NCBI GenBank assembly: GCA_032718865.1
Contig: JALUTQ010000026.1
Coordinates: 1,088,381-1,152,380 of the forward strand
Source of the DNA: Tilletia caries
Taxonomy: Eukaryota > Basidiomycota > Exobasidiomycetes > Tilletiales > Tilletiaceae
Direction: 5' to 3'
DNA: 64,000 nt
Shown one piece after another: positions 2,936 to 64,000 of this stretch (the stretch's first letter is position 1; each line of letters begins with the position of its first letter). The translations under genes and the position numbers were made by a program. The notes below the pieces were generated by a model, which made no database searches, was not told the origin of the DNA, and saw only the letters and a list, made by a program, of their open reading frames with translations.

Positions 2936-2940
2936 AGGCA

Positions 2941-3789: not shown

Positions 3790-4186
3790 CTCACCGGAAC
3801 GATACTAGGCTAGAGATCGTTGTGCGTGAGGGTCATTCCGATCTGAGGAGGCGATACCTTAGTGGACTCAGAGCAGAACGAGAGGAGGGCATAGGACGTT
3901 TTGTGATGTTAATGTATGGCAGCTAGGAGATCACTTGCGCAACCACACATCACAAAGCCTCGCAGTCAGAAATTGAACTTTGAACAGAGTAGACGATAGA
4001 AGAGAGACACGGGGTGGTCCTCGAGAACGGAGCCTGGGCCGATCAGCCGAAACAATGATCAATGATCATTGCCTGTAAAGTTACGTTCGATGGAGCATCG
4101 CATCTTCCTGAGTTCCTCCATCATCACCTTCTTTCTGTCTTCTGATCGCTCGGGTTCTCTCGCTCTGCAACTGAATTCAGTCAAAG
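3790..4186. other. Non-coding; probable left terminal region of the Ngaro-like element
   Basis: No coding stretch is convincing here. The segment directly upstream of the Gag ATG should hold the left terminal repeat and promoter of the YR retrotransposon. I could not find an obvious copy of it downstream of 9321 by eye, so split direct repeats are not demonstrated. Confidence 0.3.
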
Positions 4187-8075: not shown

Positions 8076-9321
8076 CTACGTTCTCAAAGAGAACCGGCGG
8101 TTCAATGCCAACAAGAAGCTCGAGTTCAGCGCCTTCGGGGTGAGGCAAGATCTGGATTCCTCGTTTCCGTCGGCATTCCCGCCTCCCAAAGGCATCACAG
8201 CCTTTCCAGATTCGGAAGAAGCTTTACGACAAGATCTGTTTCCGAATGTCGCAACTCACGAACGTCTGCTCTCTTGGAGGCCGGGCCTAACAGCGGCCGC
8301 TCCTCTCACTCTCGCATCTGGCAAACTCTTCCCTGCATCGGTCGTACACAATCAAGTTCGGTCTGCTCTCCACGCCTCCCTAGAGCCTTCAACTCGAGCG
8401 AACTACGGTTCTGCAATCGGCGTCTTTCTCAAGTTCTGTTTCTCAGCTGATCTTCTCGTTCAAGACATCTTTCCGATCACACAAGGCCTCCTCCTCGCGT
8501 TCGTCTCGTCGGCATACGGCTCCAAGTCAGACAGGACGGTCCGGAATCATCTGTCGGCCCTCAAGGCTTGGCATGAGATGTGGGCGTTGCCCTGGACAAG
8601 GTATGGCCTTGTTGATCGGGCCCTTCAAGGGGTAGCAAAATGCGCCCCGGGCAAAGCTGCTCTCCGACCTCCAATTCAAGTCGTGGACCTTTCTGCTGTT
8701 CAACTCTTCCTCCAACCTTCGACCAACCCGCTACATGCGGCTGTCTGGACTTGCTCCCTCTGTGCTTTCTGGGCAGTTTGCCGACTTGGCGAACTCACGG
8801 TTCCTTCTCCTCTCCTCGTCAACCCGGCAAGACACGTTTGTCGGTCACACGTTGGTCAATCTCGTTCTGTCGGTCAAGATCTTGCGGCTCTACAGATTGA
8901 TCTACCCTGGACCAAGACCACCGGCACGGATGGCATGGCAAAGATCATTTCCTCCCGAGACGACGAACTTGATCCCCTTCACGCTCTGCAGTGGCATCTT
9001 CACCTCAACTCTTCAACCACTGCCGATCTCGACTCAACGCCACTCTTCTCGTACAAGGTTTCTGCTGGTTCTGGCTTCCGTCTCGTTCCCCTCACCAAAG
9101 GCAAGATGCTGGAGGTGTTCTCTGACGCACTCCTCAGAGCTCGACGACCAACCTTTTCTGGGCACTCCTTCCGGATTGGAGGTGCGACACACTACTGGCA
9201 TCAAGGAGCCACGGTCGATCAGATCAAGCTTTTGGGTGGTTGGGCGTCGGACTCCTTTCGGGTATACCTGCGTGATCCCATTGCTGGCATTGCTCCATTG
9301 CAGCAACAGTTAGGGGGATAG
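8056..9321 (+). CDS. Tyrosine recombinase (YR) of the Ngaro-like element
   Basis: A 421-codon intact ORF. The C-terminal half shows the tyrosine recombinase catalytic set: R243 in AVCRLGELT, H370 and R373 in SGHSFRIGG, W396 in LLGGW, and Y404 in SFRVYLRD. The N-terminal half (STRANYGSAIGVFLKFC, residues 112-128) matches the core-binding domain that opens such enzymes. It would integrate the circular cDNA by strand exchange without target duplication. It overlaps the RT-RNase H ORF end by 20 nt. All catalytic residues are present, so the recombinase itself could be functional even though upstream frames are broken. Confidence 0.85.
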   Translation: MRYGSIDYVLKENRRFNANKKLEFSAFGVRQDLDSSFPSAFPPPKGITAFPDSEEALRQDLFPNVATHERLLSWRPGLTAAAPLTLASGKLFPASVVHNQVRSALHASLEPSTRANYGSAIGVFLKFCFSADLLVQDIFPITQGLLLAFVSSAYGSKSDRTVRNHLSALKAWHEMWALPWTRYGLVDRALQGVAKCAPGKAALRPPIQVVDLSAVQLFLQPSTNPLHAAVWTCSLCAFWAVCRLGELTVPSPLLVNPARHVCRSHVGQSRSVGQDLAALQIDLPWTKTTGTDGMAKIISSRDDELDPLHALQWHLHLNSSTTADLDSTPLFSYKVSAGSGFRLVPLTKGKMLEVFSDALLRARRPTFSGHSFRIGGATHYWHQGATVDQIKLLGGWASDSFRVYLRDPIAGIAPLQQQLGG

Positions 9322-21597: not shown

Positions 21598-22002
21598 GAA
21601 GTCGTATCTTCTTAAATCTAATCTCCATCTATATCTTTTCACTGGTATTTGGTGTCTCAAGCCCCTCGCAAGCGTAGCCCGCTGGGCCGCAAGCTTGACA
21701 AAGCCTGGCAAGCGCTTAAAGGCTTGTCAAGCCCCAAGCCGCTTGAGCAGTCACTGAATTGGAGGGCCGCCCCGGGGCGGCCATTAGAAACGCCCTTTAA
21801 TCTATTGCTAGTAACCCGCGCCTATGGGTGGAAGATGAGAAATGCGTACCCCGCTTGACTTACGGCTAACACTCTCGCTTCCCATCGTCTCATTCCCTCT
21901 CAGAAAAGGTGACATGCCAAGTGTGGCCGGGGCGTTGGCGTCGCCGCGTTCGCATCTCCCCAAGGGCCTCGAAAACTTCCGTTTTTTTCTTCTCTTTCTT
22001 CT

Positions 22003-22064
22003 TGGGCAGATACGTGGCGTGATGCGCCTAACGAGAGAGCGCGAGAGCGCCACGTATCTGCCCA
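22003..22064. repeat. Perfect 17-bp inverted repeat (hairpin), arm B
   Basis: TGGGCAGATACGTGGCG and its exact reverse complement are separated by 28 nt. It could form a cruciform or be a minute palindromic element; it is present in all four B/B' copies. Confidence 0.75.
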
Positions 22065-22395
22065 GCTCGGTGAGTTATGCATGTCTCTCTGGCCCACTCA
22101 GCATTCTCTGGCCACTAAGACTTCTGCTCTTCCCTCTTGACGACCAGCAGCCCATCCCATCCGGCGAGAAAGAGCCTGGAGTGAGGCAGGAACTGGGAAA
22201 CGAGATGAAGAGGTGACGCGGTGACGAGCAGCGAAAGGGCACGTGGCTCAATTTGTCCTCATTTCATCATTTGATGACGACCAGGGCGTCAGCTTCACGA
22301 CAGAGCTGGTTACATTAACGTCTGCCCACCCATTCTCATTTGGTTACTGATGACAAGTCTCCGGCTTCAACCCCTTCTCACTTCCAGCAGATCAG

Positions 22396-22403
22396 CATAA
22401 AAA
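22396..22403 (+). promoter_or_regulatory. TATA-like box of the secreted-protein gene
   Basis: CATAAAAA about 115 bp upstream of the ATG at 22516, with no ATG before it in the leader. Confidence 0.45.
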
Positions 22404-22515
22404 GGGGCTCAAGAACTGACCCACTTGCTGATGTTTTTCCCCCCAGAGACTCCACTCCCATCCTCACCACACGTCTTTTTGCGATACGCCAGACAACACT
22501 CATCTTCAAGTCACA

Positions 22516-23024
22516 ATGCGCTTCACGTCCCTGCTCGCAATCACCACCCTGCTCGCTGCAGCCATGGTAGCTGCTCGCCTACGCAGGCCCTCTGTGAGTA
22601 AGCCCACACTGCTATAGGTGCTATCTGCGGAATGTGTGCTCAACGTCTCCTACACGAATCCACAGAATGATTTCATCAAAGGCGTGGAAAATGACTGTAG
22701 TGCCAAGACCAACGAAGCATGCCCTGCGATAGGTTACAGCAACGCGCGCTACCGGGCCCGCGAGACCATCTGGAACGCATGCATGTACGCCCAATGGGTT
22801 GCTTACTCCGATCACGAAGGCGTGAGTGCTTCCTTCCTAAGTCCATTGCGAACATCATATGTCACTGACCGTGCGGATCTTTCCAGTGCCCGCATCGTGA
22901 CGCAGACTGTGCGTGCTACAATGGCTGCGTCGTGCTCTCGTCTGGATTGCACGCCAATCCTGGCGGCATTTGCGCAAAGTCCTGCCGCAAGGAGAACTAC
23001 ACCGCACTACCCTGTACCGACTAG
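22516..23024 (+). CDS. Small cysteine-rich secreted protein, 123 aa, three exons (unit 1, arm B)
   Basis: Exon 1 22516-22593 encodes a signal peptide (MRFTSLLAITTLLAAAMVAA); intron 22594-22665; exon 2 22666-22821 (NDFIKGVENDCSAKTNEACP...); intron 22822-22886; exon 3 22887-23024 (CPHRDADCACYNGCVVLSSG...ICAKSCRKENYTALPCTD). Both introns are GT-AG, phase 0. After the signal peptide there are ten cysteines, seven in exon 3, suggesting disulfide bonding outside the cell. No known domain recognised; size and cysteine content are those of effector-like or defence-type small secreted proteins, a label only. The homopolymer AAAA in exon 2 keeps the frame here but is AAAAA in the inverted copies. Confidence 0.7.
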
Positions 23025-23496
23025 TGATCGTGAGGTGAGCGTCTTTGAGCAGTCTACGCAACGATTCTCGCGGCCCTCGCTGACAGATCATCGATGATGA
23101 CACGCTATGCTTCACCCCAGACTGCCTCCGACACTGTCAAGCACCCGGTGCTCACGAGTTCAAGCCAAAAGCCCATCGTCACGAGGACGGCGATTGCTGT
23201 GCTGCGTCAAGCTCGTCCAGCGACCATAGACTCATCACTCAGGGAATCGTGCAGATTCAGCTGGCACATCAAGTCGTCATTCAGCCCCTCTTCCATCCAT
23301 TTCTTCATCACAACCCGCTTCGATATGACCTCTTAGGTTATTTCCAAGGCTTTCATGCCTTCCGAAATTCAGAGTCCTTGGTCATACTTGATCTGCCGGA
23401 AAGAAAGAGCCAATAGCGTCGAATTGTGCGAACGGATATGAGATTCATGGTGGGGTAGGTGAACACACACCTTAGGTCCACAACCTGATACTCTCT
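23025..23496 (+). other. Possible second cysteine-containing exon downstream of the secreted protein
   Basis: After a CTGACAG acceptor (about 23,088) the frame reads DDTLCFTPDCLRHCQAPGAH and then DGDCCAASSSSSDHRL. The cysteines suggest either a fourth exon used by alternative splicing or the remains of a related gene. The preceding exon ends in a stop before the nearest good donor (GAGGTGAGC at 23,033), so I do not join them. Confidence 0.25.
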
Positions 23497-25300
23497 CCAC
23501 ATCGTCAAACGTCCAGCTCTGCCGGGCGCACTGCATGTTGCAACCCTTGTATGCTTCGCCTTCTCCTTTCCCCCGAGGATCACGTTCGAACACTGAGACA
23601 GGTCTAATCGAGGGAGAAACCACCTATGGATTACATCGAACATAATCAAGGGACGGGCGGACAAGCCGAGCTAGGAATTCAGGATGCTGTTGCGGTCCTG
23701 CTGTCGACTTGACCCCGTCGATCAGCGTATCATACTCACATAACGCAAGCACACCTGCCACATATTGCAACCTTGATCCTTTGGGGTAGACATCTGGATG
23801 ATCAGCCGGCAAGAGGATGTGTGGAGCTCTCGTCTATCGAGCCTGGCGCTATAGCAGATATGTGAGAACGACCTTGGTGCAGTACATAGGTTCTGAAGCA
23901 AATACCAATGAGCTCCAAAGTTAGCGCAACAAACAAACAGATCATGTACCAACGTTTACAGCGACGATGCGTCAACGGAACGTTTTCTATTTGGAACGGT
24001 ATGAGAAGAGAAGTCAGCTGGAAAAGTTGTAGACGTCAGACATCAGCCGGCACGACAGGATCCGCAGGCAGAAGTAGTTTCGGAAAGGAAGGTACGATTG
24101 CCTGGGTGCTCCTGATATTCTTTGTCCTAGGTCGGGAGGAAGTGGAAAGAGAAGGCCACGGGTCGTGCTTCGGGCGTAACGCAACCTCCGCGTACGACCT
24201 CGTCGACGTGATCGTCAAGGTCCGATGGGATCTCAAATCGCTCCTTCGTCCGAGAAACGCGAACTGCGAGGGTCCCGAGGGGACACTCCGGACATAGGTG
24301 CGCATCCAGGTCTCATTCTCCAGTTTCCCTCCTCGCACGGAAGGCCCTAGAGAGTAGAGAGTAGAAGGGGGAAAAGGAGATACAGAAGGAAACGAAGACG
24401 GAACACGGGAAAAGGGAGACTCGTCAGTCTGAGCAGCCTAAAACGGTCGCGGCCGTAGATGTACTTGGCACTGGTGCAGAGCTGGAAGGCAGACTTAGCA
24501 GTGCCGGGCGATGGGACGCCCTTGTACTTGGTCTTCAATTATGAGGCGGATCCTCGTCGTCCGAGTGATCCGGGACGATAGATGCGACGTGAGCGCATGA
24601 GCGCTGTTGTCTAGGTGGCGGGTGACGTGAGTACCGACAATCGTTCGAACGTTGCAGCCGTTCGAGTTGGGGGTGCCATTCTGACGGGGCTCGAGAAGAA
24701 TGGCGATAGAGTAGAAGATGAGGATGGAAAGGGTAGCAAAGGCGATGTTGATGCGTACATTTCAGATGATACACGATGCATGATGCATGATGTATGATGG
24801 GCGAGAGTGCCGAAGATAGCTGCGGGTTAGAAGTAAGACAGAAAAGAGTGGCAAGAGGCCAAAGCGAAGCGAGTGACTAGTGAGATAGTGAGAGATGAAG
24901 ATGAGGAGAGCAGTCAGCTGGCGAAATCACCTGGACGCCCCGACGCCCTGTCTTCATCTTCAACTCAGATTGATATACATGTGGCTCTATTAAATTATCC
25001 TCCTTTCCTTCTGGCATCAGCGCCGCAGCACGTACTTCATTACTTCATTCATGAATGCGGTTGACGCCCAACCACGAACAATACTCAATCAGTACCATGC
25101 CAAGGATGTAGTGCTGGCCATCCTCCTCAGTATCGGGGCTAAAGCTGCCGGCTTCGGGGCGTAGTCCATACAGTCCGTGTTCCAAAGAACGTTCTTTCAT
25201 AGGCCGTCCGACTTCCTCATCGCCCTACTTTCAAGCTGCCTTGTACCGAGCCAGGAAGGCTGATCGAAGGAAGCAGCATCGAGTTCAGAGACGCAAGTGA
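23497..25300 (-). other. Gene-poor spacer with weak minus-strand coding remnants, unit 1
   Basis: Minus-strand stretches with some coding look are PDVYPKGSRLQYVAGVLALC (about 23,800-23,740), CPECPLGTLAVRVSRTKERF (about 24,295), a hydrophobic INIAFATLSILIFYSIAILL segment (about 24,750-24,690) that could be one membrane span, and TAKSAFQLCTSAKYIYGRDR (about 24,500). They may be exons of one or more decayed genes. No family is recognised and no continuous model was built. Confidence 0.25.
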
Positions 25301-28816: not shown

Positions 28817-28884
28817 GGACTGTATGTTGGTGGGCTCGACTTCGTTGCGAGAAGGCCCAAGTATAAGTACCCAACGAAGCATGC

Positions 28885-30557
28885 AGAGAGTATCAGGTTG
28901 TGGACCCAGGTGTGTGTTTACCTACCCCACCATGAATCTCATATCCGTTCGCACAATTCGACGCTATTGGCTCTTTCTTTCCGGCAGATCAAGTATGACC
29001 AAGGACTCTGAATTTCGGAAGGCATGAAAGCCTTGGAAATAACCTAAGAGGTCATATCGAAGCGGGTTGTGATGAAGAAATGGATGGAAGAGGGGCTGAA
29101 TGACGACTTGATGTGCCAGCTGAATCTGCACGATTCCCTGAGTGATGAGTCTATGGTCGCTGGACGAGCTTGACGCAGCACAGCAATCGCCGTCCTCGTG
29201 ACGATGGGCTTTTTGGCTTGAACTCGTGAGCACCGGGTGCTTGACAGTGTCGGAGGCAGTCTGGGGTGAAGCATAGCGTGTCATCATCGATGATCTGTCA
29301 GCGAGGGCCGCGAGAATCGTTGCGTAGACTGCTCAAAGACGCTCACCTCACGATCACTAGTCGGTACAGGGTAGTGCGGTGTAGTTCTCCTTGCGGCAGG
29401 ACTTTGCGCAAATGCCGCCAGGATTGGCGTGCAATCCAGACGAGAGCACGACGCAGCCATTGTAGCACGCACAGTCTGCGTCACGATGCGGGCACTGGAA
29501 AGATCCGCACGGTCAGTGACATATGATGTTCGCAATGGACTTAGGAAGGAAGCACTCACGCCTTCGTGATCGGAGTAAGCAACCCATTGGGCGTACATGC
29601 ATGCGTTCCAGATGGTCTCGCGGGCCCGGTAGCGCGCGTTGCTGTAACCTATCGCAGGGCATGCTTCGTTGGTCTTGGCACTACAGTCATTTTTCCACGC
29701 CTTTGATGAAATCATTCTGTGGATTCGTGTAGGAGACGTTGAGCACACATTCCGCAGATAGCACCTATAGCAGTGTGGGCTTACTCACAGAGGGCCTGCG
29801 TAGGCGAGCAGCTACCATGGCTGCAGCGAGCAGGGTGGTGATTGCGAGCAGGGACGTGAAGCGCATTGTGACTTGAAGATGAGTGTTGTCTGGCGTATCG
29901 CAAAAAGACGTGTGGTGAGGATGGGAGTGGAGTCTCTGGGGGGAAAACATCAGCAAGTGGGTCAGTTCTTGAGCCCCTTTTATGCTGATCTGCTGGAAGT
30001 GAGAAGGGGTTGAAGCCGGAGACTTGTCATCAGTAACCAAATGAGAATGGGTGGGCAGACGTTAATGTAACCAGCTCTGTCGTGAAGCTGACGCCCTGGT
30101 CGTCATCAAATGATGAAATGAGGACAAATTGAGCCACGTGCCCTTTCGCTGCTCGTCACCGCGTCACCTCTTCATCTCGTTTCCCAGTTCCTGCCTCACT
30201 CCAGGCTCTTTCTCGCCGGATGGGATGGGCTGCTGGTCGTCAAGAGGGAAGAGCAGAAGTCTTAGTGGCCAGAGAATGCTGAGTGGGCCAGAGAGACATG
30301 CATAACTCACCGAGCTGGGCAGATACGTGGCGCTCTCGCGCTCTCTCGTTAGGCGCATCACGCCACGTATCTGCCCAAGAAGAAAGAGAAGAAAAAACGG
30401 AAGTTTTTCGAGGCCCTTGGGGAGATGCGAACGCGGCGACGCCAACGCCCCGGCCACACTTGGCATGTCACCTTTTCTGAGAGGGAATGAGACGATGGGA
30501 AGCGAGAGTGTTAGCCGTAAGTCAAGCGGGGTACGCATTTCTCATCTTCCACCCATA
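28885..30557 (-). repeat. Inverted repeat arm B', unit 1
   Basis: Reverse complement of 21823-23496. Its left edge cuts the DDGS-like gene and its right edge is fused to the kinase of unit 2. Confidence 0.92.
29357..29866 (-). pseudogene. Cysteine-rich secreted protein, frameshifted inverted copy (unit 1, arm B')
   Basis: Exons 29866-29789, about 29716-29560 and 29494-29357 mirror the arm-B gene. Exon 2 has five instead of four A in the AAAATGAC run, shifting the frame after GVE(N). The same extra base is found in unit 2's B' copy, so it predates the tandem duplication. Confidence 0.7.
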
Positions 30558-50417: not shown

Positions 50418-51349
50418 CAGGGCGCTACGTGCGCGTCCGCCACGCTCCGCTGATGTCTCGTGGCGGCAATGTCGAGCTTGCTCGAGTTGTGGACGTCCTT
50501 CTCGGCGGCACGGTGTGCGCGCGTAAGCGCATTCGGTTCCTCAACGAGCCACCGCGCCCTCTGCTCTTCGAGGTCGAGGCCCTGACGCGTCTGCAGGGCC
50601 ACAAAGGCATCACCCAGCTCCTCGATGTGTGCTTTACAACACACAAGGTCGACATCATCATGCCACTCTACTGGGGTACGCTGCAAGATCTTTTCGACCA
50701 GGCAAACGGCCGCGAACTGGAGACGAGTCTGGCGAAGAACTTGACGCTGCAGCTTCTGGTCGCGGTCTCTTTCATCCACCGCAAGGAGGTCATTCATCTC
50801 GACATCAAGCCCGCCAACCTCATGCTGACTCGAGACTTTACGATCAAGGTCGGTGACTTCGGCATCTCTGCGCTCGCCGGACAGAATTAAGACGCGTGCA
50901 CGTACGGCACCCTCGAATATACGGCTCCGGAATGCCTCCTCGGATCCATCAAGCCCACGTTTCAAGTGGACGTCTGGTCGACGGGCTGCGTAATCGCGCA
51001 TCTCTTTCTTGGCCGACCCCTCTTCACCAACTTGTACGATGCGGCCAGCTCCGTGGAAGACATACTACAGTTCACCGGTCATGCAGGAGGGCCCGTATTT
51101 GCACGAGCTCGGTTTTCGCCGTCTGCGTTCGACTTAACCATGGACTGGAGGCCGTTCGAATCTCAGGCATCGGCTATTCTTCAGGACGTGGACGGGGACG
51201 CGGCAGACATCATCGAGAAGATGCTTTGTCTTCAACCAAATCGTCGCCCTCACCTGGCGAATTTTTTCCCTCACAGTCTCTTCACCACCGACCCTCGTCC
51301 AAACCGGATCAATCCCATGCTCCCTCGCAGTAACGCGTCAATTCGATGA
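50418..51349 (+). pseudogene. CDK-like protein kinase, 5'-truncated copy 3
   Basis: Same as copy 2: fused to arm B' at GRYVRVRHAP, TAA ending at 50890, APE retained, frame open afterwards to 51349. Confidence 0.75.
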
Positions 51350-51577
51350 GACCACCGACGAGGGGTAGTGCTCCGATATGTTTCCTTCAAGTCTCCAGCC
51401 TCCATCTTATCAAGGAATCAAGTGACCTTTCCATCTTCAACATGCTCTCGTGCTCATCCTCCGCTACGCTATCCAGAAGTTCTTTGAGATCATGATACAA
51501 TCTAAAAGCTATTGGAAAGATTGATTGCTTGCTAGCAGACGTCTCGTTCGAATGGACAGCACTGAATCCGAGCTCTC

Positions 51578-53286
51578 TCAAAGGTCCGGTAGCTTGTTTA
51601 TCGTCTCCGCAATCTGCTTGACCTCGGCAGGAAGCCCAGAGAGCTCGTCCGCGCCGTGGATGAGCCAGTGTTTGGTCGAGACCAGTTTAGAGAGCGCCTT
51701 CGAAGACAGGCTTTGGCGCTTGCTGGTGCTGAAGAGCGCTGCCTGCGAGAAGACCCGTTCGACGGAAGATGAACTTCCTGGGATACCAAGAATCACTCGA
51801 GCAATCTTTGCAATATTGGGGAAGACGTTCTCGTTGTCGCGCCACCATTTGTACGGTGTTTCGTCGGAGTCTCGCCAAGGACAGTTCTTGATGTTGAGAT
51901 ACCGTGCCACCTCATCGGAATCGGTGTCCGTCTTCTTGCGTCTTTCTTCCGCAAGCTGTTGCTGTCGAAGTCGTTTAGCTTCTTGTAGCATCGTCGTTGA
52001 GGTTCCCGCTCCGTTTGAAGTGGAAGCCGTGGAAGCCAGCTGATTGTTTCCTTGACCCTGCCCTAGCCATTCGCTCATGATGTCCCGCAGCGCCTTCTCA
52101 GCTTCCTTTCCATACGTTGGGTAGGCCAATTCGAAGAGCTCCATACGATTGGCGGGATCCAGCAACGCTGCGACGAGCGTGTATCGATTGTGGAGCGCAA
52201 GGGTGCGATACTTCAAGAGCTTTGAGCTCATGGCCGCCAAGAAGGACTTCAGCGATTCCGTCGTCTCCTTTCCGAGATCTGCCGTGTCCAGTTCGGCGAC
52301 GGTGGCCTTGATCTTGTCACGGAGACTGGCGTGGTGATCGAGGACCATGTATAGCGTTCCACGAGCCTTCTCGAGCTCCTTGGTTGCCTCTGATGCCAGC
52401 TCCAGGATCGGCATCAGAAACTCCAACATTGTCCATTCCGATTTGGTGAGCAGGTAGGAGCCCAGCTTGTCGCTCTTCTTTCCGATGTTGGCGCGACAGT
52501 GGGAGTCAATCGCCTCGCGAATCTTGAGCGCCGCCCTGATCATCCGGAAGTGGGAGCTCCAGCGTGTAGCATTTGGCTTCGGGGGAAAGGGCGCTTTGGC
52601 CAGCTTGGGCCTCCTGTGATACTCCTTGGCCATGGTGGTGCGAAAGTCGTCCCTCCTTCCACTGCCTCTATGGATAGACGTCGTGAACGCCTCCAGCTTG
52701 GTGACGGCGTTGACCTTGGTCTTGGAGATCCGCGTCTTGGAGGGCCCATCTACCTCTGGGCCGCCGCCGTCGTCGGAGAGCAGCTCACCTGCCTCTGGAC
52801 CCATGTCCTCTTCGCCCGAGGATTCATAATCGACAGAGCTGAGACCGATGCCTTCACTTGAGCAGCCGACTTGCGATCCAGCGTGACTTGTCCACGTCCC
52901 TTCGGTTGGAGTTTGTCGAGCTCGGGAGCGTACTCCAGCACGTCCATCATCCTGTGGTTGGTACCGGTGGAATCGCTGGTAACGGATCCAGCCCACTTGT
53001 CACCGAGGTCGTTGGCTAGTAGAGTCCTCGCCAAGTGCCCGCTGAAAGTGGCTCCCGTGTGCTTCTCCTTCAGGACATCGAAGGACAGTAGCGTCTCGCT
53101 GAACTCCCAGTCTCGATCGACGTATGTTGCCAGCATGGCTACGAAAGAATACTGGAAGCCCTTGGTCGTCCATGCGTCGTGCTGTACGGAAAAGAGTGTG
53201 TCGATACCTTGCAGCCGTTTCTTCATGTCCAACTCCAGATTGCCGTGGAAGACGGCAAGGTCGCGTCGGATGGTGGCGCCGGACAT
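51578..53286 (-). pseudogene. hAT-family transposase relic, copy 3
   Basis: Same as copy 2, including the S/A and L/D substitutions. Its upstream flank ends 131 bp further on at the telomere repeat, so the right subterminal palindromes are lost. Confidence 0.8.
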
Positions 53287-53417
53287 GAGCAGGTTCCGAT
53301 TTCCAATACATCGAATGATGCATCATGTCTGTGTGGACTCGTTTGAGTCTGGCCGGTCAAGTGGTTCACCAAACCCTGATCAAAGACCTTGTTACAGAAA
53401 GGTCATCGCTGCCCGCC

Positions 53418-53473
53418 TTAGGGTTAGGGTTAGGGTTAGGGTTAGGGTTAGGGGTTAGGGGTTAGGGTTAGGG
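53418..53473 (+). repeat. Telomeric (TTAGGG)n tract 1
   Basis: Nine units, two of them TTAGGGG, begin directly after GCTGCCCGCC of unit 3. The G-rich strand reads rightward, the orientation of a right chromosome end. Confidence 0.97.
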
Positions 53474-54504
53474 TTAAAGTAAGAAGTGAAGTGACAACTT
53501 GAGGGAGACTTGAAGAGGAGTCGAGGATGGCGAGTAAGACGTGGCTACAGGTGCGCTTACTGTTTCGTCCTCAAACTGGACTCTTCAGGCGTCGTCTTTA
53601 TACCTTTTTGGATCCCCTACGGGGACTTCTCTGATTTCTGTTGGGCATCCCTGTCAAGGTGCGCTTTCTACGGGGTTCTACGATGTTCCGAAGACGCATC
53701 GCGCCCCAGAAAACTAAGTGAACTTGTCCCAACAGAAGAAAGAAGGGTAACTAATTTGGGGGAGTCCCTCAAATTTCGATGTGGCGTTGTGGCTTTGGGG
53801 TGGTGCCCCAAATTAAGTGCCCTCGGCCTTTGGATCGAAGTACCCTTTTTCTCAGAATGATCCGTATGACCTTTCATCTCAGTGTCAGCCGATGGGTCCT
53901 AGCTCCCTTTTCAGGGGGGGTTCTCATTCGAGTACTGACGTGGCAGTGCTGGGTCTTAATCAGGAGACCGACGGATAGCCGATTACCACAGCCAAATTTG
54001 GGGGGGTGTGGGGACCTCAACCAAATTGGGGGGGTCCTTCGGAGCTAAGTCGGTGATCTGTCATAAGTCTCAGGTAGCCGAGATGTGGGGATATAGGTCT
54101 CAGAGAGGTTTGTTTCTTCTTTTTTGTCTTTCTGTCTATGTCGATGGTCCCATATAGGATGGCGTCATCGTTCATTCTCCATTTGTAACTCTAAGTCATA
54201 AATGGATTCACAGAAAGTACAAATCAGATTGTGTATGGCTTTCTAGTTACTAACCGGTGATCGCTCTTAGAACTGTCTTTGTACTAGACTAGTTAATCGA
54301 GACGATACTTCTCTATGTATAAGGTGCTGGAACCTTATACTAGCCATCGGTGTTCTACTTTTTGAAAATGTCAATTTTTTTGGCATTACTAGGCCTAAGC
54401 CGTTCCCTAAATAGGATATACCCGTCTGACCGACCCACTAAGGGGACTGCGGGAAAATAATGCCAAAAAAATCGTCGAAAAAAATCGGCGAAAAAAAATT
54501 GACG

Positions 54505-54585
54505 ACCATACGCGGATTCGAACAAGGGACTTGGAGTGATACAGGAATCAAACTTCCTACCACTGGTCCATAGTCCCCGCCGAAT
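54505..54585 (-). other. tRNA-like sequence in the P1 3' region
   Basis: Minus strand: GGGGACTATGGACCAGTGG (A-box-like TGGACCAGTGG) and, 50 nt on, TTGTTCGAATCC (B-box-like). The stems do not pair as in a working tRNA. Homologous copies lie near 57,335-57,410 and 61,575-61,655. Confidence 0.4.
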
Positions 54586-54664
54586 TTGTTAAACTACTTA
54601 CCCTCAAGCACTCATATACTACATTCCTACTAAGTTTATAGTATCCATATGGTACTTTCTTAAG

Positions 54665-56254
54665 TTAAGAGTTAACAATGTTATCCTTAAACCTTTCTAT
54701 GGTCTCTTTGTTCTTACGGTTGAATAAGTCTCCTAGAGCGGGAGGTTTACTTTGGCTATGTATGACTCTAGTGTTAGTTGGAAGAAATTCTAGACTTTCC
54801 CAAGTCGTTAGAATAGCATCCCATACTGTCTTCATGTTAGTACCTTCCCATAAGGGATTATATGTACTCTTAAAGATGAGAGTTTCAACCTTGTCTTTCT
54901 CAGTTGGAGTACACTCTGTCTTCCCTGTTAAGGTGAATGCACGAGTGTTCTGATAATCGACCGTTAGGAAGACTTTGTTGAGGAACCCGTGAGGGTAACC
55001 TCGTGCACGCAGTCTAAGATAGAACTTTTTTTCCGTATCTCTAAGAAGCTGTTCAATTCTGAGCAGTTCCTTACATGTCGTAGCAGTTCAGCTTTTTATC
55101 CATGCTTTCTTAACATGTAGTGGATGATACGAGGACCATGGTATATACTGGTATGCATTCATGGGCTTTTTGATATGTTTTTTTGTTAGGAGTTGAATGT
55201 TGTCTTTAACTTTAGCAGTTACGACTTCAACATCTAAGAAGGTCATTGAGCTTTTTTTGAAACATTCCAGGTGAACTTAAAGTTACTATGCTCGCTTTCA
55301 AAGTTATCGATGAAGTTTTTGTGGAGAGTCTTTGTTGCCTCTGACTACCACAAAGATGTCATCAAGATACCTGCCATAGTACTTTATGTTCTGTCCCTGT
55401 CCCGAGTTAGTCTGAGATGTCCCAGTATACTCGGCTTCTGCCATAACCAAGTTGGCATACATGGGAGCACACGAGGTGCCCATGGCTGTGCCTTTAACTT
55501 GTAGGTAGTACTTTCCCATAAAGGTAAAGTAGTTATTACGAAGAATCTTTTTCTAGTAATTTTTAGTACTAGAGTTATGGTCTCTATAGGCAGAGAGGAG
55601 CGTTTAAGTATATTTGCCATGCATTCTAGACCCCAGTCTGTAGGGATGCTAGGGTACATTGCTTCAACGTCTCCTGAAATCAGCCAGATGTCCTCTTCAG
55701 GGTCTGGAGATCCAATGGAAGTATATCTCATTGGCAGGGTTTGTAAGAAGGTAGTCGTGTCCTTAAGGATCCAAGGGTAGTCCTTGACTATGACCTTAAG
55801 TTTTTTTCTGCAACCCAGATTGATGCATTCGTATAGAATGTATTAAAGCTAGGCACTATAGGTCTTCCTAGGACAGGACTCTTATGTACTTTAGGAAGTA
55901 ACTTAAAGTAAGGAAGGGATGATTCTACATCGGATCTCACAAGTAGCCACTTACGTTCCTGAAGGGTCAAGGACCCTCCAAGTTTGTAAATGGTTTCCTT
56001 GATCCATCTTCTGTCATCTAACCAATCTGGTTCTTCCACTTCCTTGTAAACTGCCTTGTCGGTCAGTTGTCTTAAGGCTTCTTTATAGTACCACTCGACC
56101 GGTACGATTGCCATACCCATATTCTTATCTGTAGGTAGAATTAGTAAGGACTCTTCTCTTAAGAAGATGTCCAGGGTCTTTATGGCATGTATCGGTGGGT
56201 TAGGCCGAGTGAGTTTCTTACTCATTAAAGATTCTAAGATGGCATAGCCTTTGC
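54665..56254 (-). pseudogene. Penelope-type reverse transcriptase, P1, 5'-truncated and frameshifted
   Basis: Reading from 56254 leftward: LPTDKNMGMAIVPVEWYYKE, FKLLPKVHKSPVLGRPIVPS, WLISGDVEAMYPSIPTDWGL (motif A), VKGTAMGTSCAPMYANLVMA (motif B), YYGRYLDDIFVVV (catalytic YLDD, about 55,360), then thumb motifs AYQYIPWSSYHPLHVKKAWI and RARGYPHGFLNKVF. The C-terminus is PPALGDLFNRKNKE with the stop at 54665-54667. The GTAMGTSCAP...YLDDIF combination is typical of Penelope RTs, which are related to telomerase RT. Several single-base shifts in homopolymers break the frame. The N-terminus is missing because the copy is truncated at tract 2. Confidence 0.88.
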
Positions 56255-56328
56255 TTAGGGTTAGGGTTAGGGGGTTAGGGTTAGGGTTAGGGTTAGGGTT
56301 AGGGTTAGGGTTAGGGTTAGGGTTAGAG
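56255..56328 (+). repeat. Telomeric (TTAGGG)n tract 2
   Basis: Twelve units, one expanded to TTAGGGGG, between the truncated 5' end of P1 and the 3' end of P2, in the same orientation as tract 1. Confidence 0.97.
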
Positions 56329-59300
56329 TAGAAGTGAAGTGACAACTTGAGGGAGACTTGAAGAGGAGTCGAGGATGGCGAGAGAGACGTGGCTACAGGT
56401 GCGCTTACTGTTTCGTCCTCAAAACTGGACTCTTCGACGTCGTCTTTATACCTTTTGGATCCCCTACGGGGACTTCTCTGATTTCTGTTGGGCATCCCTG
56501 TCAAGGTGCGCTTTCTACGGGGTTCTGATGTTCCGAAGACGCATCGCGCCCCAGAAAACTAAGTGAACTTGTCCCAACAGAAGAAAGAAGGGTAACTAAT
56601 TTGGGGGAGTCCCTCAAATTTCGATGTGGCGTTGTGGCTTTGGGGTGGTGCCCCAAATTAAGTGCCCTCGGCCTTTGGATCGAAGTACCCTTTTTCTCAG
56701 AATGATCCGTATGACCTTTCATCTCAGTGTCAGCCGATGGGTCTAGCTCCCTTTTTCAGTTCTCATTCGAGTACTGACGTGGCAGTGCTGGGTCTTAATC
56801 AGGAGACCGACGGATAGCCGATTACCACAGCCAAATTTGGGGGTGTGGACCTCAACCAAATTGGGGTCCTTCGGAGCTAAGTCGGTGATCTGTCATAAGT
56901 CTCAGGTAGCCAAGATGTGGGGATATAGGTCTCAGAGAGGTTTGTTTTCTTCTGTCTTTCTGTCTATGTCGATGGTCCCATATAGGATGGCGTCATCGTT
57001 CATTCTCCATTTGTAACTCTAAGTCATAAATGGATTCGCAGAAAGTACAAATCAGATTGTGTATAGCTTTCTAGTTACTAACCGGTGATCGCTCTTAGAA
57101 CTGTCTTTGTACTAGACTAGTTAATCGAGACGATACTTCTCTATGTATAAGGTGCTGGAACCTTACTAGCCATCGGTGTTCTACTTTTCGAAAATGTCAA
57201 TTTTTGGCATTACTAGGCCTAAGCCGTTCCCCTAAATAGGATATACCCGTCTGACCGACCCACTAAGGGGACTGCGGGAAAATAATGCCAAAAATCGTCG
57301 AAAAATCGGCGAAAAATTGACGACTACTTGCCGACGCAGGATTCGAACGAGGGACTCGAGTGATACAGGGAATCAAACTTCCTACCACTGGTCCATAGTC
57401 CCCGCCGAATTTGTTAAACTACTTACCCTCAAGCACTCATGTATGCTACATTCCTACTGAGTTTATAGTATCCATATGGTACTTTCTTAAGTTATGAGTT
57501 AACAATGTGTCCTTAAACCTTTCTATGGTCTCTTTGTTCTTACGGTTGAATAAGCGTCTCCTAGAGCGGGAGGTTTTACTTTAGCGCTGTATGACTCTGG
57601 TGTTAGTTTGGAAAGGAAATTCTGAGACTTTCCCAAGTCGTTGGAATAGCATCCATACTGTCTTCATGTTAGTACCTTCCCATAAGGGATTATATGCTCT
57701 TAAAGATGAGAGTTTCAACCTTGTCTTTCTCAGTTGGAGTACGCACCTCTGTCTTCCCTGTTAAGGTGAATGCACGAGTGTTCACGATAATCGACCGTTA
57801 AGGAAGACTTTGTTGAGGAACCCGTGAGGGTAACCTCGTGCACGCAGTCTAAGATAGAACTTTTTCCGTATCTCTAGAAGCTGCTTCAATTGCTGAGCAG
57901 TTCCTTACGTGTCGTAGCAGTTCAGCTTTTATCCATGCTTTCTGCCATGGCAGTGGATGATACGAGGGACCATGGTATATACTGGTTGCGTTCGTGGGCT
58001 TTTGATATGTCTTTTGTTAGGAGGTTGGATGTTGTCTTTAACTTTAGCAGTTACGACTTCAACATCTACGAAGGTCATTGAGCTGAAACATTCCAGGTAG
58101 AACTTAAAAGTTACTATGCTCGCTTTCAAAGTTATCGATGAAGTTTTGTGGAGAGTCTTTGTGTGCCTCCTTGTCTACCACAAAGATGTCATCAAGATGC
58201 CTGCCATAGTACTTTATGTTTCTGTCCCTGTCGAGTTAGTCTGGGGTGTCCCAGTATACTCGGCTTCTGCCACTCAACCAAGTTGGCATACATGCAGGAG
58301 CACACGAGGTGCCCATGGCTGTGCCTTTAACTTGTAGGTAGTACTTTCCCATAAAGAAGGTAAAGTAGTTATTACAGAAGAATCTTTTCTAGTAATTTTA
58401 GTACTAGGAGTTATGGTCTCTATAGGCAGAGAGGAGCGTTTAAAAGTGTATTTGCCATGCATTCTAGACCCCAGTCTGTGGGATGCTAGGAGTACATTGC
58501 TGCAACGTCATCTGACAGTCAGCTCAGATGTCACTCTTCAGGGTCTGGAGATCCAATGGAAGTATATCTCGTGGCAGGGTTTGCTAAGAAGGTAGTCGTG
58601 TCCTCAGGATCCAAAGGGTAGTCCTTGGCTATGACCTTAAGTTTTTCTGCAGCCAGATTGATGCATTCAAAGCATAGAATTGTATTAAAGCGGAGGCACT
58701 ATAGTCTTTCCTAGGACAGGACTCTTATGTACTTTGGGAAGTAACTTAAAGTAAGGAAGGGATGATTCTACATCGGATCTCACAAGTAGCCACTTACGTT
58801 CACAGAGAGGTCAAAGGACCCTCCGGAGTTTGTAAATGGTTTCCTTGGTCGTCTTCTGTCATCTAACCAATCTGGTTCTTCCACTTCCTTGTAAACTGCC
58901 TTGTCGGTCGGTTGTGCTCATGCTTCTTTATAGTACCACTCGACCGGTACGATTGCCTTTGCCCATATTCTTATCTGTATGGGTAGAATTAGTAAAGGAC
59001 TCTATCTTCTCTTAAGAAGATGTCCAGGGTCTTTATGGCATGTATCGGTGGAGGTTAGGCTCGAGTGAGTTTCTTACTCATTAAAGATTCTAAGATGGCA
59101 TAGCCTTTGCTAATTCCTTTTTCAAATTTAGCATTGCCCTTGGGTGCTTCGTGCGTGTAGCCACAATATGGAATTTAGGGTTAAATTGCTGCTTGTATTG
59201 ATTCTTTTGACAGTGGCTCCATTTCCATCTTGAGTCTTCGAACGAAGTCATATGAATTCTTCCAAAGTTCTTCCTTTAGTTAGAAATTGAATGAATTTCA

Positions 59301-60540
59301 TGTGTAAGAGATAATTCTCTGTACAGGGTGTGGGACCGGTGTCTTCGAAAGGTTATGGACTTGATCGTTGAAGGATCTTGAGTCGATATATTCCAGTGAG
59401 GAATGTCTTGCGAGGAACAGCGTTCGTTCTGAAAGGAGGCAGTAAAGAATTCCACTGGGTAAGTACTTATCTTTTGCTATCAAAGTTAGAAGGTACTGAC
59501 CAGTTGCCCTTAGGGACTTTGGACTTGTTCTGCCCGCCTTAGACTTGGCCTTGGTCTTTTGAACCTTTAGGCTTTTGTTGTCTGGCTTCTTCCCTTTGTG
59601 GACACTCGATTTTGCTTTGCCTTTTCCCTTGCCTTTGAATGGCTGAGCGCGGTGCTGGCTCTCGAAGTGCCTTTGGCAGCGAGCGGCTCCTTGACCAGTT
59701 CACCCAACTGCTTGTTGCAGCGATTTACCTCTTGGAGTGCAAGCTGAGCTTCATAGGCTTTCTGTTGCTTAGGTTCTTTAAATTCTTTTTCCTTAAGTGA
59801 TGACTTGTTAGCCGCTTGAAGGTAAAGTTTATCGAGGGTCTTTTAGCAAAGGTTGTACTTGAGGACCTCCACTTGCACCTCTGACGAGGGGAATGTCTGA
59901 TCCAGCATGATCCTTTCGAGGCACCTCAGCTCTGGCTTCCAGTGCACTACGATGAGGTTTGGGGAGGAGGGCCTGGGTAATCGCCCTCAATGACCAGCTG
60001 ATGGAAGCTTTTACCGTCTTCCTAGCCCGTCGATCAGAATGTTGAGGAGTGAACCTCGAAGCAGTTCTTCCTTCTTCTCAGCCATCCTTTCCTGAAGAGT
60101 TTGGAAAGCATCTGGGTTTGACTCCATGAGCTTTCGCTTACTAATCTGGAGAGGAGGAGAGTGCACTGTGCCTTTAGTGGCAGGAGGGAAGTGGTCTGGG
60201 CCTGGGGCCTTTGCACGTTCCAACGCGGCCAAGTTTTCCCTGGCCTTGAAGTATTTTGAATACACGGAGGACGCTCTTGCGAGGTGCTCTCTCGTGATAT
60301 TCTCAAGGTCGGGCGAGGCTCAGCTTAGCTGAAGCGGGTCCCGGGGATACTGCTTGTCGGATACCTTGATGGTAGTCCTGACCGCCTGAGCCACCGCATG
60401 GAGGTCCTTCGACGTCCCGCGGCCGTGCCGAGATTGGTCACGTAGAGCTTGCGCTCGGGCGTGAGAGGATGTGAAAGGGAGAGGAGAGAGAGGAGTAGGA
60501 GAAGGGGGAACTACAACGTGCCTCATCAGCGTAAAGGTGT
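56329..60540 (-). mobile_element. Penelope-like element P2, longest copy
   Basis: Starts on tract 2 with the same 3' end as P1 and runs 4.2 kb, including a 5' coding region absent from P1. It ends where P3's 3' end begins, near 60,541. Confidence 0.85.
57492..60526 (-). pseudogene. Penelope-type RT with N-terminal extension, P2, many frameshifts
   Basis: The probable start is the ATG at 60526 (MRHVVVPPSPTPLSPLPFTS). Next come ARENLAALERAKAPGPDHFP and PDAFQTLQERMAEKKEELLR (about 60,240-60,060), a Lys-rich segment (about 59,650-59,530), and then RT motifs as in P1, ending at the stop 57492-57494. The frame is broken many times, by single-base and by 2-4 base insertions relative to P1. The N-terminal 600-700 codons have no recognised domain beyond the basic region. 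The full protein would be near 1,000 residues, longer than canonical Penelope RTs. Confidence 0.7.
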
Positions 60541-63500
60541 TGTCGAGGTGGAGTGGGGTGAAAGTAAGAAGTGAAGTGACAACGGCGAGGAGACTTGAAG
60601 AGGAGTCGAGGATGGCGAGTAAGACGTGGCTACAGGTGCGCTTGCTTTCGTTTCGTCCTCAAACTGGACTCTTCGAGGCGTCGTCTTTATACCTTTTGGA
60701 TCCCCTACGGGGAGCTTCTCTGATTTCTGTTGGGCATCCCTGTCAAGGTGCGCTTTCTGCGAGGGTTTCTACTGATGTTCCGAAGACGCATCGCGCCCGC
60801 AGGAAAACTAAGTGAACTTGTCCCAACAGAGAAGAAAGAAGGGGTAACTAATTTGGGGGAGTCCCTCAAATTTCGATGTGGCAGTTGTGGCTTTGGCAGT
60901 GCCCCCAAATTAAGTGCCCTCGGCGCTGGATCGAAGTACCCCTTTTTCTCAGAATGATCCGTGTGACCTTTCATCTCGGTGTCAGCCGATGGGTCCTAGC
61001 TCCCTCCAGGGGGTTCTCATTCGAGTACTGACGTGGCAGTGCTGGGTCTTAATCAGGAGACCGACGGATGGCCGAATTCGCCACAGCCAAATTTGTGTGT
61101 GGGGACCTCAACCAAATTGGGGTCCTTTCAGCTAAGTCGGTGATCTGTCATAAGTCTCAGGTAGCCGAGATGTGGGGATACGGGTCTCAAGAGAGGTTTG
61201 TTTCAGCTCTGTCTTTCTGTCTATGTCGATGGTCCCATATAGGATGGCGTCATCGTTCATTCTCCATTTGTAACTCTAAGTCATAAATGGATTCACAGAA
61301 AGTACAAATCGACTGTGTATGGCTTTCTAGTTACTAACCGGTGGTCGCTCTTAGAGCTGTCTTTTGTACTAGACTAGTTAATCGAGACGATACTTCTCTA
61401 TGTATAAGGTGCTGGAACGCTTATGCTAGCCATCGCTGATTGTTCTACTTTTTGAAAATGTCAATTTTTGGCATTGCTAGGCCTAAGCCGTTCCCTAAAT
61501 AGGATATACCCGTCTGAGGCGACCCACTAAAGGAGACTGCGGGGAAAATAATGCCATCGTCGATCGGCGAAAAATTGACGACCATCACGCGGATTCGAAC
61601 AAGGGACTTCTGGAGTGATGCAGGAATCAAAACTTCCTACCACTGGTCCATGGTCGCCGAATTTGTTAAAACTACTTACCCTCAAGCACTCGCCATACTA
61701 CATCCTACTAAGTTTATGGTATCCATATGGTACTTTCTTAAGTTAAGAGTTAACAATGTTATCCTTAAACCTTTCTCTGGTCTCTTTGTTCTTACGGTTG
61801 AATAAGTCCTCCTAGAGGCAGGAGAGTTTTACTTTGGCTATGTGTGACTCTAGTGTTGAGTTGGAAGAAATTCTGGGCCTTTTCAAGTCGATTAGAATAG
61901 CATCATACTGTCTTCTGCCATGTTAGTACCTTTCCCATGAGGGATTATATGTACTCTTAAAGATGAGAGTTTCAACCTTGTCTTTCTCAGTTGGAGTACA
62001 CTCTGTCTTCCCTGTTAAGGTGATGCACTGAGTGTTCTGAGAAGCAGTCGACCGTGGGGAAGACTTTGTTGAGGAACCCGTCGAGGGTAACCTCGTGCGC
62101 ATGATCTAAGATAGAACTTTTCCGTATCTCCCAGAAGCTGTTCAATTCTGAGCGGTTCCTTACATGTCGTAGCAGTTCAGCTTTTATCCATGCTTTCTTA
62201 ACATGTAAGTGGGATGATACGAGGACCATGAGCCATATACTGGTATGCATTCGTGGGCTTTTGATATGTCTTTTTGTTAAGGAGTTGAATGTTGTCTTTA
62301 ACTTTAGCAGTTACGACTTCAACATCTCGAAGGTCATTGAGCTTTTGAAACATTCCAGGTGAACTTGAGAGTTACTAACCTGCTCGCTTTCAAAGTTATC
62401 GATGAAGTTTTGTGGAGAGTCTTTGTTGCCTCTGACTACCACCAGAAAGTGTCATCAAGATACCTGCCATAGTACTATGTTCTGTCCCTGTCCCAAGGAG
62501 ATTAGTCTGAGATGTCCCAGTATATACTCGGCTTCTGCCATAACCAGGTTGGCATACATGGGAGCACTACGAGGTGCCATGGCTGTGCCTTTAACTTGTC
62601 GTAATACTTTCCCATAAAGGTAAAGTAGTTATTACGAAGAATCTTTTCTAGTAATTTTAGTACTAGAGTTATGGTCTCTCTAGGCAGAAGAGGGGCGTTT
62701 AAGTGTATTTGCCATGCATTCTAGACCCCAGTCTGTAGGGATGCTAGGGTACATTGCTTCAACGTACTCCTGAAATCAACCAGATGTCCTCTTCAGGGTC
62801 TGGAGATCCAGTGGAAGTATATCTCATTGGCAGGGTTTGTAAGAAGGTAGTCGTGTCCTTACAGGATCCAAGGGTAGTCCTTGGCTATGACCCTTAAGTT
62901 TTTCTGCAACAGATTGATGCATTCGTATAGAATGTATTAAAGCCTAGGCACTATATGGGTCTTCCTAAGGACAGGACTGCTTATGTACTTTGGGAAGTAA
63001 CTTAAAGTAAGGAAGGGATGATTCTACCATCGGATCTCACAAGTAGCCACTTACGTTCCTGAAGGGTCAAAGGACCCTCCCAAAGTTTGTGCATCGTTTC
63101 CTTGATCCATCTTCTGTCCATCTAACCAATCTGGTTCTTCCTGCTTTCCCTTGTAAACTGCCTTGGCGGTCAGTTGTCTTAAAGACTTCTTTATAGTACC
63201 ACTCGGCCGGTGCGTGCCATACCCATATTCTTATCTGTAGGTAGAATTAGTAAGGACTCTTCTCTTGAAAGTCGTCGAGGTCTTTACATGGCATGTATCG
63301 GTGGGTTAGGCCGAGTGAGTTTCTTACTCATTAAAGATTCTAGATGGCATAGCCTTTGCTAATTCCTTTTTCAAATTTAGCATTGCCCTTAGAGTGCTTC
63401 CGTGTTAGATACAATATGGAATTTAGGGTTAAATTCTTTCTTGTATTGATTCTTACGGTGATGCTCATTTCCATCTTAGTCTTCGAACTGAAGTCCCCAT

Positions 63501-64000
63501 ATGAATTCTTCCAAAGTTCTTCCTTTGGGTTAGGAGTGGGAATGAAATTTCATATTGCTTGAGAGATAATTCTCTGTACAGGGTGTGGGACCGAGGTGTC
63601 TTCGAAGGTTATGGACTTGATCGTTGAAGGATCTTGAGTCGATATATTCCAGTGAGGAATGTCTTGCGAGGAACAGCGTGTCGTTCTGAAAGGAGAGCAG
63701 TAAAGAAATTCCACTGGGTAAGTACTTATCTTTGCTATATCAAAGTTAGAAGGTACTGACCAGTTGCCCTTAGGGACTTTGGACTTGTTCTGCCGGGAGG
63801 CCTTAGACTTAGCCTTGGTCTTTTGAGCCTTTAGCTTTTTGTTGTCTGGCTTCTTCCCTTTGTGGGCCTCGATTTTGCTTGCACCTTTTCCCTTGCCTTT
63901 GAATGGCTGGGCCGGTGCTTTGCTTTTCAGAAGTGCCTTTAGCGAGCGACTCACTTGACCAGTTCACCAACTGCTTGTTGCAGCGATTTACCTTTTTCTT
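60541..64000 (-). mobile_element. Penelope-like element P3, runs off the window
   Basis: Third copy, with its 3' end AAAGTAAGAAGTGAAGTGAC at about 60,565. It joins P2 directly, with no TTAGGG between. It covers the 3' region, the RT and part of the N-terminal extension before the window ends. Confidence 0.85.
61743..64000 (-). pseudogene. Penelope-type RT, P3, partial and frameshifted
   Basis: The stop aligns with P1 and P2 (61743-61745). The thumb HVKKAWIKAELLRHVRNRSE is readable at about 62,200 and the Lys-rich N-terminal part is open from 63954 to 63550 (KGKGKGASKIEAHKGKKPDN...). The RT core between them is interrupted by numerous small indels, more than in P1. The 5' end is beyond the window. 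Confidence 0.7.

What the first reader, a model, noticed from the sequence alone, without database searches (positions are those of the whole stretch)
53418..64000. Telomere-attached array of endonuclease-lacking Penelope-like elements
Three Penelope-type RT elements lie head to tail with coding strand minus; the first two begin at their 3' ends directly on (TTAGGG)n. This is the geometry expected if the telomeric G-strand 3'-OH primes reverse transcription: the plus strand carries TTAGGG followed by cDNA. The ORF ends soon after the thumb, with no GIY-YIG endonuclease. Seen: motifs, orientation, junctions. Known: Athena/Coprina elements at telomeres of rotifers and basidiomycetes. Inferred: these are members, with a long, mostly undescribed basic N-terminal extension (about 58.7-60.5 kb).
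Basis: partly seen in the sequence, partly recalled or inferred. Interest (0 to 1): 0.88.

Follow-up and report, generated by a model that had tools for sequence, protein, structure and literature searches.

The report
Telomere-attached Penelope retroelement arrays
This chromosome end of the wheat bunt fungus Tilletia caries is built of head-to-tail copies of a retroelement without a DNA-cutting enzyme, which probably copies itself straight onto telomere ends; such elements are known, but the junctions here follow a clean rule that hints at how they are copied.

Summary
From 53,418 the window carries (TTAGGG)n and three head-to-tail Penelope-like elements (PLEs), coding strand minus. Copies 1 and 2 start on telomere repeats; copy 3 abuts copy 2 directly.

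The genome is very probably Tilletia caries TC1_MSG: its largest contig has the published length. A 3'-end probe hits it 80 times; all 31 hits on contigs of known length lie within 22.8 kb of an end, in the expected orientation. No GIY-YIG motif follows the RT here or in 186 relatives. Telomerase is present.

New detail: 48 of 80 copies start TTAGGGT(T/G)|AAAGTAAG. Of 26 full-length spacings, 25 end in a direct copy-to-copy junction containing TAGGGT and one in telomere repeats; of 27 shorter spacings, none is direct. No intact 5' end was found capped by telomere repeats. A hammerhead-like motif lies near the 3' end (below Rfam's cut-off).

Best reading: reverse transcription primed by the telomere overhang, perhaps on a multi-unit RNA; recombination may have spread arrays. 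A new member of a known kind; membership of Coprina proper was not testable.

The parts
50418..53417 (+). Partial third unit of a 19.85-kb direct repeat of chromosomal DNA, cut off where the telomere tract begins
   Evidence: 99.1-99.7% identity to the earlier units, which continue with other sequence after the same point
53418..53475 (+). First (TTAGGG)n tract, the seed of the array
53476..56254 (-). Element copy 1, 5' truncated, followed distally by TTAGGG
53536..53598 (-). Hammerhead-like motif of copy 1; predicted cut between 53546 and 53545, about 70 nt from the element's 3' end
   Evidence: descriptor match 1 in the window, 0 in 60 resampled windows; Rfam score below cut-off in a homologous copy
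54668..56225 (-). RT coding region of copy 1, frame broken
   Evidence: tblastn with the open frame of another copy
56255..56324 (+). Second (TTAGGG)n tract, capping truncated copy 1 and seeding copy 2
56325..60553 (-). Element copy 2, complete
57500..59081 (-). RT coding region of copy 2, frame broken
   Evidence: tblastn
59135..60454 (-). Lysine-rich N-terminal extension of copy 2
   Evidence: tblastn with open pieces from other copies; no Pfam family
60554..60560 (+). Direct junction of copies 2 and 3; elsewhere TAGGGTG, here TGGGGTG
60561..64000 (-). Element copy 3, cut by the window end

Best explanation
This is an endonuclease-deficient, telomere-attached Penelope-like retroelement family of Tilletia caries. 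Its protein (basic N-terminal extension, telomerase-like RT, helical C-terminus, no endonuclease found) uses the 3' end of the telomeric G strand as primer. The overhang ...TTAGGGT(T) pairs with an ACCCUA in the element RNA (...CUUACUUUCACCCUA...), so that synthesis begins in one register. The enzyme copies towards the RNA 5' end. If it stops early, the truncated cDNA is capped by telomerase with TTAGGG, and a later copy can be added on that cap. If it completes a unit, it nearly always continues into another unit, most simply because the template RNA spans more than one unit (a read-through transcript of an array, or a circle). Shown: position, orientation, register, the pattern of truncation and caps, no endonuclease found, presence of a telomerase gene. 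Inferred: priming by the overhang, capping by telomerase, the multi-unit template. Arrays have probably also been exchanged between ends by recombination.
For: Probe: 80 hits, 47 minus and 33 plus, 0 in the backwards control; minus hits all at coordinates up to 22,749; 31 of 31 on contigs of known length within 22.8 kb of an end and correctly oriented. 48 of 80 copies match TTAGGGTTAGGGT(T/G)AAAGTAAG with at most 2 mismatches, 36 T and 12 G; three more read in the same register (window copy 2; C23 and C34). The innermost copy of 26 of 26 ends starts on telomere repeats. Full-length spacing followed by a direct junction 25 of 26; shorter spacing followed by a direct junction 0 of 27. No intact 5' end capped by TTAGGGTTAGGG in an exact-pattern search. 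Very short truncated copies next to telomere repeats. The RT model has telomerases as its first PDB matches. Telomerase RNA-binding domain once, inside C30. The 516-aa RT frame is open without stops in 3 places. The mechanism of such elements as stated in PMC3846280 (passage).
Against: No RNA, read or protein data. The register count is partly selected by the search pattern; 4 of the 80 junctions remain unread. Contig lengths of C21-C40 could not be read, so for 24 plus hits the distance to the end is unknown. One of 26 full-length spacings (C27, 4282) is followed by telomere repeats. No copy ends exactly at the predicted hammerhead cut, and two short copies end 6 and 11 nt beyond it, so those templates were not cut there. 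Copies on different ends are as alike as neighbours, and truncated lengths recur (3672-3741 on four ends, 2174 and 2207 on two), which fits spread by recombination.
Confidence: 0.75

Rival explanations
1. Recombination builds the arrays. One or a few copies were attached to telomeres by reverse transcription long ago; since then break-induced replication and unequal exchange between chromosome ends, starting in TTAGGG tracts or in the elements, have copied arrays from end to end, as with yeast Y' elements. Breaks inside an element followed by telomerase give the truncated, capped copies.
For: Copies on different ends are as alike as neighbours: C6L_2 and C7L_1 differ by 3 substitutions in 4202, C6L_1 and C6L_2 by 9 in 4209. 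Truncated lengths recur on different ends. It explains the near absence of complete copies with a telomere cap, because a break seldom falls on a unit boundary.
Against: Two junction letters (36 T, 12 G) point to more than one attachment; many distinct truncated lengths, from 84 to 3849 in spacing; three RT frames stay open in full, which favours recent activity without proving it.
Confidence: 0.4
2. Self-priming: unit-length linear RNA is copied; the finished cDNA ends in a telomere mimic (..GGAGTAGGGT) that anneals to the ACCCUA of the next RNA and primes it, so complete copies chain without telomerase.
For: The direct junction contains TAGGGT in the same register as the telomere-attached copies.
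Against: It would have to be efficient enough to leave almost no complete copy with a telomere cap (25 of 26 direct; 0 exact capped ends).
Confidence: 0.25
3. Assembly artefact: the repeats sit at contig ends only because the assembly broke in them.
For: Long-read assembly; several arrays run into the first or last bases of a contig; window copies 2 and 3 are 5-6% off the others.
Against: All hits have one orientation relative to the end; TTAGGG is joined to the innermost copy of 26 of 26 ends; on C1, C4 (both ends) and C9 telomere repeats lie between the outermost copy and the contig tip.
Confidence: 0.03

Closest known systems
Coprina and other fungal endonuclease-deficient PLEs (Gladyshev and Arkhipova 2007, not held; second-hand in PMC3846280, PMC4522978 and PMC6515669, passages seen)
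   Same: RT without GIY-YIG, largely confined to chromosome ends, telomere repeats added to truncated 5' ends; 3' end on telomere repeats pointing away from the telomere
   Different: Here complete units also join directly without a telomere tract, with a counted rule for when they do. Sequence relation to Coprina itself untested
Athena and Terminons of bdelloid rotifers (PMC6431247, passages seen)
   Same: Endonuclease-deficient, 5' truncated by telomere repeats, head-to-tail arrays, hammerhead followed by a C-rich stretch complementary to the overhang
   Different: Terminons reach 40 kb with accessory genes and have the complementary stretch immediately after the ribozyme; here a 4.2-kb element with the stretch about 70 nt past the predicted cut, at the unit junction
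Poseidon of Anolis (PAc), an endonuclease-bearing PLE (PMC11167929, main text part 1 of 2 and passages seen)
   Same: Tandem genomic units; RT starts inside the RNA near the junction of terminal repeat and ORF
   Different: Has GIY-YIG and cuts its own target; not telomeric
Telomere-localised PLE of Mycosphaerella graminicola and PLEs at telomere-lacking ends of Agaricus bisporus (PMC4522978, PMC7473861, passages seen)
   Same: Fungal PLEs at chromosome ends; in M. graminicola one orientation per end with telomeric 3' ends
   Different: Transition-riddled elements in M. graminicola; no junction rule in the passages seen

Membership tests
Penelope-like elements | RT related to telomerase, with PLE-type motifs | tested here: met
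   RVT_1 E 1.5e-9; conserved motifs among 9 aligned relatives (that they are PLE signatures is recalled); first PDB fold matches are telomerases, TM 0.40-0.51, with Prp8 close behind; the sequence profile finds bacterial RTs, not telomerase
Penelope-like elements | Hammerhead motif in the terminal region | tested here: inconclusive
   Descriptor match in window copy 1 only, 0 in 60 resampled windows, 10 matches on the coding strand of six contig-start loci and 0 on the other strand; Rfam 13.7 bits against a cut-off of 34, nothing at E<=1 for the whole region; activity not tested
Endonuclease-deficient PLEs | No GIY-YIG endonuclease after the RT | tested here: met
   No Pfam match other than RVT_1 at E<=1; 0 of 120 and 0 of 66 relatives with a GIY-YIG-like pattern (pattern recalled, no positive control); no PF01541 in the listed relatives
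Endonuclease-deficient PLEs | Copies at chromosome ends, 3' end on telomere repeats | tested here: met
   reserve: lengths of contigs C21-C40 unread
Endonuclease-deficient PLEs | Telomere repeats added to truncated 5' ends | tested here: met
   Of 27 shorter spacings 21 are followed by a telomere junction, 6 unmatched; of these 6, three were read as telomeric, three are unread
Coprina proper | RT groups with Coprina of Coprinopsis and Phanerochaete (recalled) | not testable with these tools
   No sequence named Coprina among the listed hits. Tree: sister to P0002 and unnamed relatives, in a 28-row group that also holds Puccinia, Microbotryum, Rhodotorula, Cryptomeria and Closterium, apart from the 18-row group with the ascomycetes; midpoint root
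Terminons | Giant size with accessory ORFs | tested here: not met
   Unit about 4.2 kb; 26 of 54 neighbour spacings lie between 4150 and 4300

The most novel reading that the evidence does not exclude
The element is copied onto telomeres by internal initiation on a circular or head-to-tail multimeric RNA. The telomere overhang anneals to the ACCCUA that lies at the unit junction just before the ORF, and RT runs round or along the template for one or many units. That yields seamless arrays, and telomerase caps the end only where RT falls off. The hammerhead would serve to make the circles.
Probability: 0.25. Interest if true: 0.72.

Novelty: new member of a known kind. Interest (0 to 1): 0.48.

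Why it matters
Endonuclease-deficient PLEs are close living relatives of telomerase that carry their own template gene, and how they choose their start and build arrays is little known. This assembly holds at least 80 copies on 26 contig ends in a fungus that also has telomerase. The junction rule (complete units run on, truncated ones get capped) makes a specific template model testable with existing reads. It also suggests why the published repeat table of this genome (43 Penelope elements, 4,706 bp; PMC10684912, passage) misses most of this sequence.

Tried and rejected
Rfam on 53300-64000 at E<=1 gave nothing; only short stretches brought up Hammerhead_1, below threshold, among chance matches to other families. 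ARAGORN found no tRNA. That short copies start at the hammerhead cut was tested twice and not met. Whether window copies 2 and 3 are badly assembled or diverged stays open: of the outermost copies held, C5L_0t is also 4-5% or more off, but C6L_0t and C7L_0t are not. A structure search by sequence found bacterial RTs only. Searches for print on this case: Tilletia with Penelope, 1 paper; Tilletia with telomer, 20 papers, of which one was searched for Penelope and held none; Penelope with subtelomer and basidiomycete, 5; Penelope with telomer, circular RNA and head-to-tail, 2; Penelope with chromosome ends, fungal genome and telomeric repeats, 4. Most subscription papers are not held, so none of this shows absence from print.

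Not from any call: the hammerhead and GIY-YIG patterns used in scripts, the PLE motif names, the Y' comparison, and the control-list status of Tilletia indica are recalled.
Full report
WHAT IS THERE. From 53,418 the window holds (TTAGGG)n (TRF 53418-53476 and 56255-56326; 15 matches to TTAGGGTTAGGG, 0 in shuffles) and three copies of one element, coding on minus. Copy 1 (about 53476-56254) is 5' truncated and followed by telomere repeats; copy 2 (about 56325-60553) is complete; copy 3 (60561 to the window end) abuts copy 2 without a telomere tract. To the left lies a 19.85-kb direct repeat whose third unit stops at 53417, where units 1 and 2 continue with other sequence: this end looks like a break inside a tandem repeat that was healed with TTAGGG.

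WHICH GENOME. The window is C21:1088381-1152380 of a 38.1-Mb, 40-contig assembly. A PI4-kinase frame from the C1 end matches Tilletia indica at 91% and T. horrida at 82-86%. C7 is 2,689,501 bases long, exactly the largest contig reported for T. caries TC1_MSG, a Flye nanopore assembly polished with POLCA (PMC10684912, passages seen). That paper reports 46 contigs and 38.18 Mb against 40 and 38.10 here, so the held copy may be a filtered version. It lists 43 Penelope elements and 4,706 bp, and its main text has no word beginning with 'telomer'.

WHERE THE COPIES ARE. The 21-base 3'-end probe has 80 matches, 47 minus and 33 plus, 0 in the backwards control. All 47 minus hits lie at coordinates up to 22,749. 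On C1-C20, whose lengths are known, 31 of 31 hits lie within 22.8 kb of an end with no orientation exception; in all, 26 contig ends are occupied. For 24 plus hits on C21-C40 the contig length could not be read. The RT protein has 99 matches (83 of 147 candidates scored, so a lower bound); read by eye, all fall on the same ends. At least two ends have telomere repeats and no probe hit (C1 right, C7 right).

JUNCTIONS. Telomere-attached copies begin TTAGGGT(T/G)|AAAGTAAGAAGTGAAG: 48 matches, 36 T and 12 G. Direct copy-to-copy junctions read GAGGTGGAGTAGGGTGAAAGTAAG: 26 matches with at most 3 mismatches, of which 25 belong to the 80. Seven of 80 matched neither pattern; of these, window copy 2 and the copies at C23:1324 and C34:12489 read in the telomere register, and four stay unread. 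The register count is conditioned by the pattern, but at most these four could differ. Neighbouring copies give 54 spacings. Of 26 spacings of 4150-4300, 25 are followed by a direct junction and one (C27, 4282) by a telomere junction; of 27 shorter ones, 0 by a direct and 21 by a telomere junction, 6 unmatched; one spacing of 8062 is unmatched. The innermost copy of all 26 ends sits on telomere repeats. An exact search for intact 5' ends capped within 14 bases by TTAGGGTTAGGG found 0; it would miss variant 5' ends. Very short copies exist next to telomere repeats.

PROTEIN. L045:5728-7278 holds an open 516-aa frame with RVT_1 (E 1.5e-9) and no other Pfam family; the frame is open over its full length in 3 places of the genome. 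Upstream, overlapping open pieces in different copies (L044:1466-2482, L043:5947-6732, L044:2740-3651) carry a lysine-rich extension without Pfam match above cut-off, and a 64% relative, P0002, carries it in one frame with the RT, so a single ORF is likely. Of 120 nearest relatives 0 have a GIY-YIG-like pattern after the RT and one (P0005) a C-terminal extension over 100 aa; of 66 more, 0 and one (P0199). Many relatives are fragments, and the pattern had no positive control. In a 46-row tree, rows chosen by me and midpoint-rooted, the family joins P0002 and unnamed relatives, in a group with Puccinia, Microbotryum and Rhodotorula but also Cryptomeria and Closterium, apart from the ascomycete group. 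The AlphaFold model (9-row alignment, mean pLDDT 78) finds telomerases first in the PDB at modest TM-scores, with spliceosomal Prp8 close behind. A sequence profile finds bacterial RTs, not telomerase.

RIBOZYME. On the coding strand, about 70 nt before the 3' end, lies a sequence that fits a type I hammerhead with a 3-bp helix III. In the window it matches a descriptor only in copy 1, and 0 times in 60 resampled windows; I wrote the descriptor after seeing the motif. The proposed structure is -12.4 against a minimum of -13.6 kcal/mol. Rfam scores it 13.7 bits, below its cut-off of 34. PLE hammerheads are said usually to lack helix III (PMC7761336, PMC6155905, passages). Copies ending at the predicted cut were sought and not found.

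MECHANISM. Priming at exposed chromosome termini by endonuclease-deficient PLEs, with telomere repeats added to truncated 5' ends, is the published reading (PMC3846280, passage). In Terminons a hammerhead followed by a stretch complementary to the overhang is described (PMC6431247, passages). An endonuclease-bearing PLE studied in vitro starts RT inside its RNA near the junction of terminal repeat and ORF (PMC11167929, main text part 1). Here the ACCCTA complementary to the overhang lies at the unit junction, and the first ATG follows 32 nt after the start of its CACCC; complete units nearly always run into a further unit. The simplest account is internal initiation on an RNA of more than one unit: linear unit-length templates should leave complete copies capped by telomerase, and at most one (the 4282 spacing) was seen. 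Recombination between ends is a serious rival for how arrays grew, because copies on different ends are as alike as neighbours and truncated lengths recur; self-priming by the TAGGGT at the end of a finished cDNA is a second. The stated confidences of these overlap, since attachment by RT and later recombination can both be true.

VERDICT.

Noticed in passing
10705-53417: A 19.85-kb direct repeat (two units and a partial third, 99.65% alike), each full unit with 1.68-kb inverted arms about 99% alike (for example 21823-23499 and 28882-30557); holds hAT transposase genes and a kinase fragment.
   Followed up: partly
461-2305 and 7050-9318: A frame with integrase H2C2 and Tf2-1 SH3 domains and, further on, two adjoining long frames without Pfam match that look DIRS-like by eye.
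   Followed up: no
L047:1252-4905: C9 left end: a 1218-aa frame with Helicase_C and a weak DEAD match next to the telomere-attached copy, reminiscent of fungal telomere-linked helicases (compare PMC4522978, passage).
   Followed up: no
56325-64000 and L043:1-1122: Window copies 2 and 3 and the outermost copy of C5 left are about 4-8% off other copies, while the outermost copies of C6 and C7 left are not: poor consensus or real divergence.
   Followed up: partly
L056 (C18): Contig start with 30% GC; the contig has five GIY-YIG matches, probably mitochondrial with homing endonucleases.
   Followed up: no
L037, L039, L043, L045; C7, C27, C30, C36: Truncated copies cluster about 460-520 nt from the 3' end (blast starts 3713, 3717, 3756, 3769 of about 4231), and spacings of 3672-3741 occur on four ends: perhaps RT pause sites or shared blocks.
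   Followed up: no
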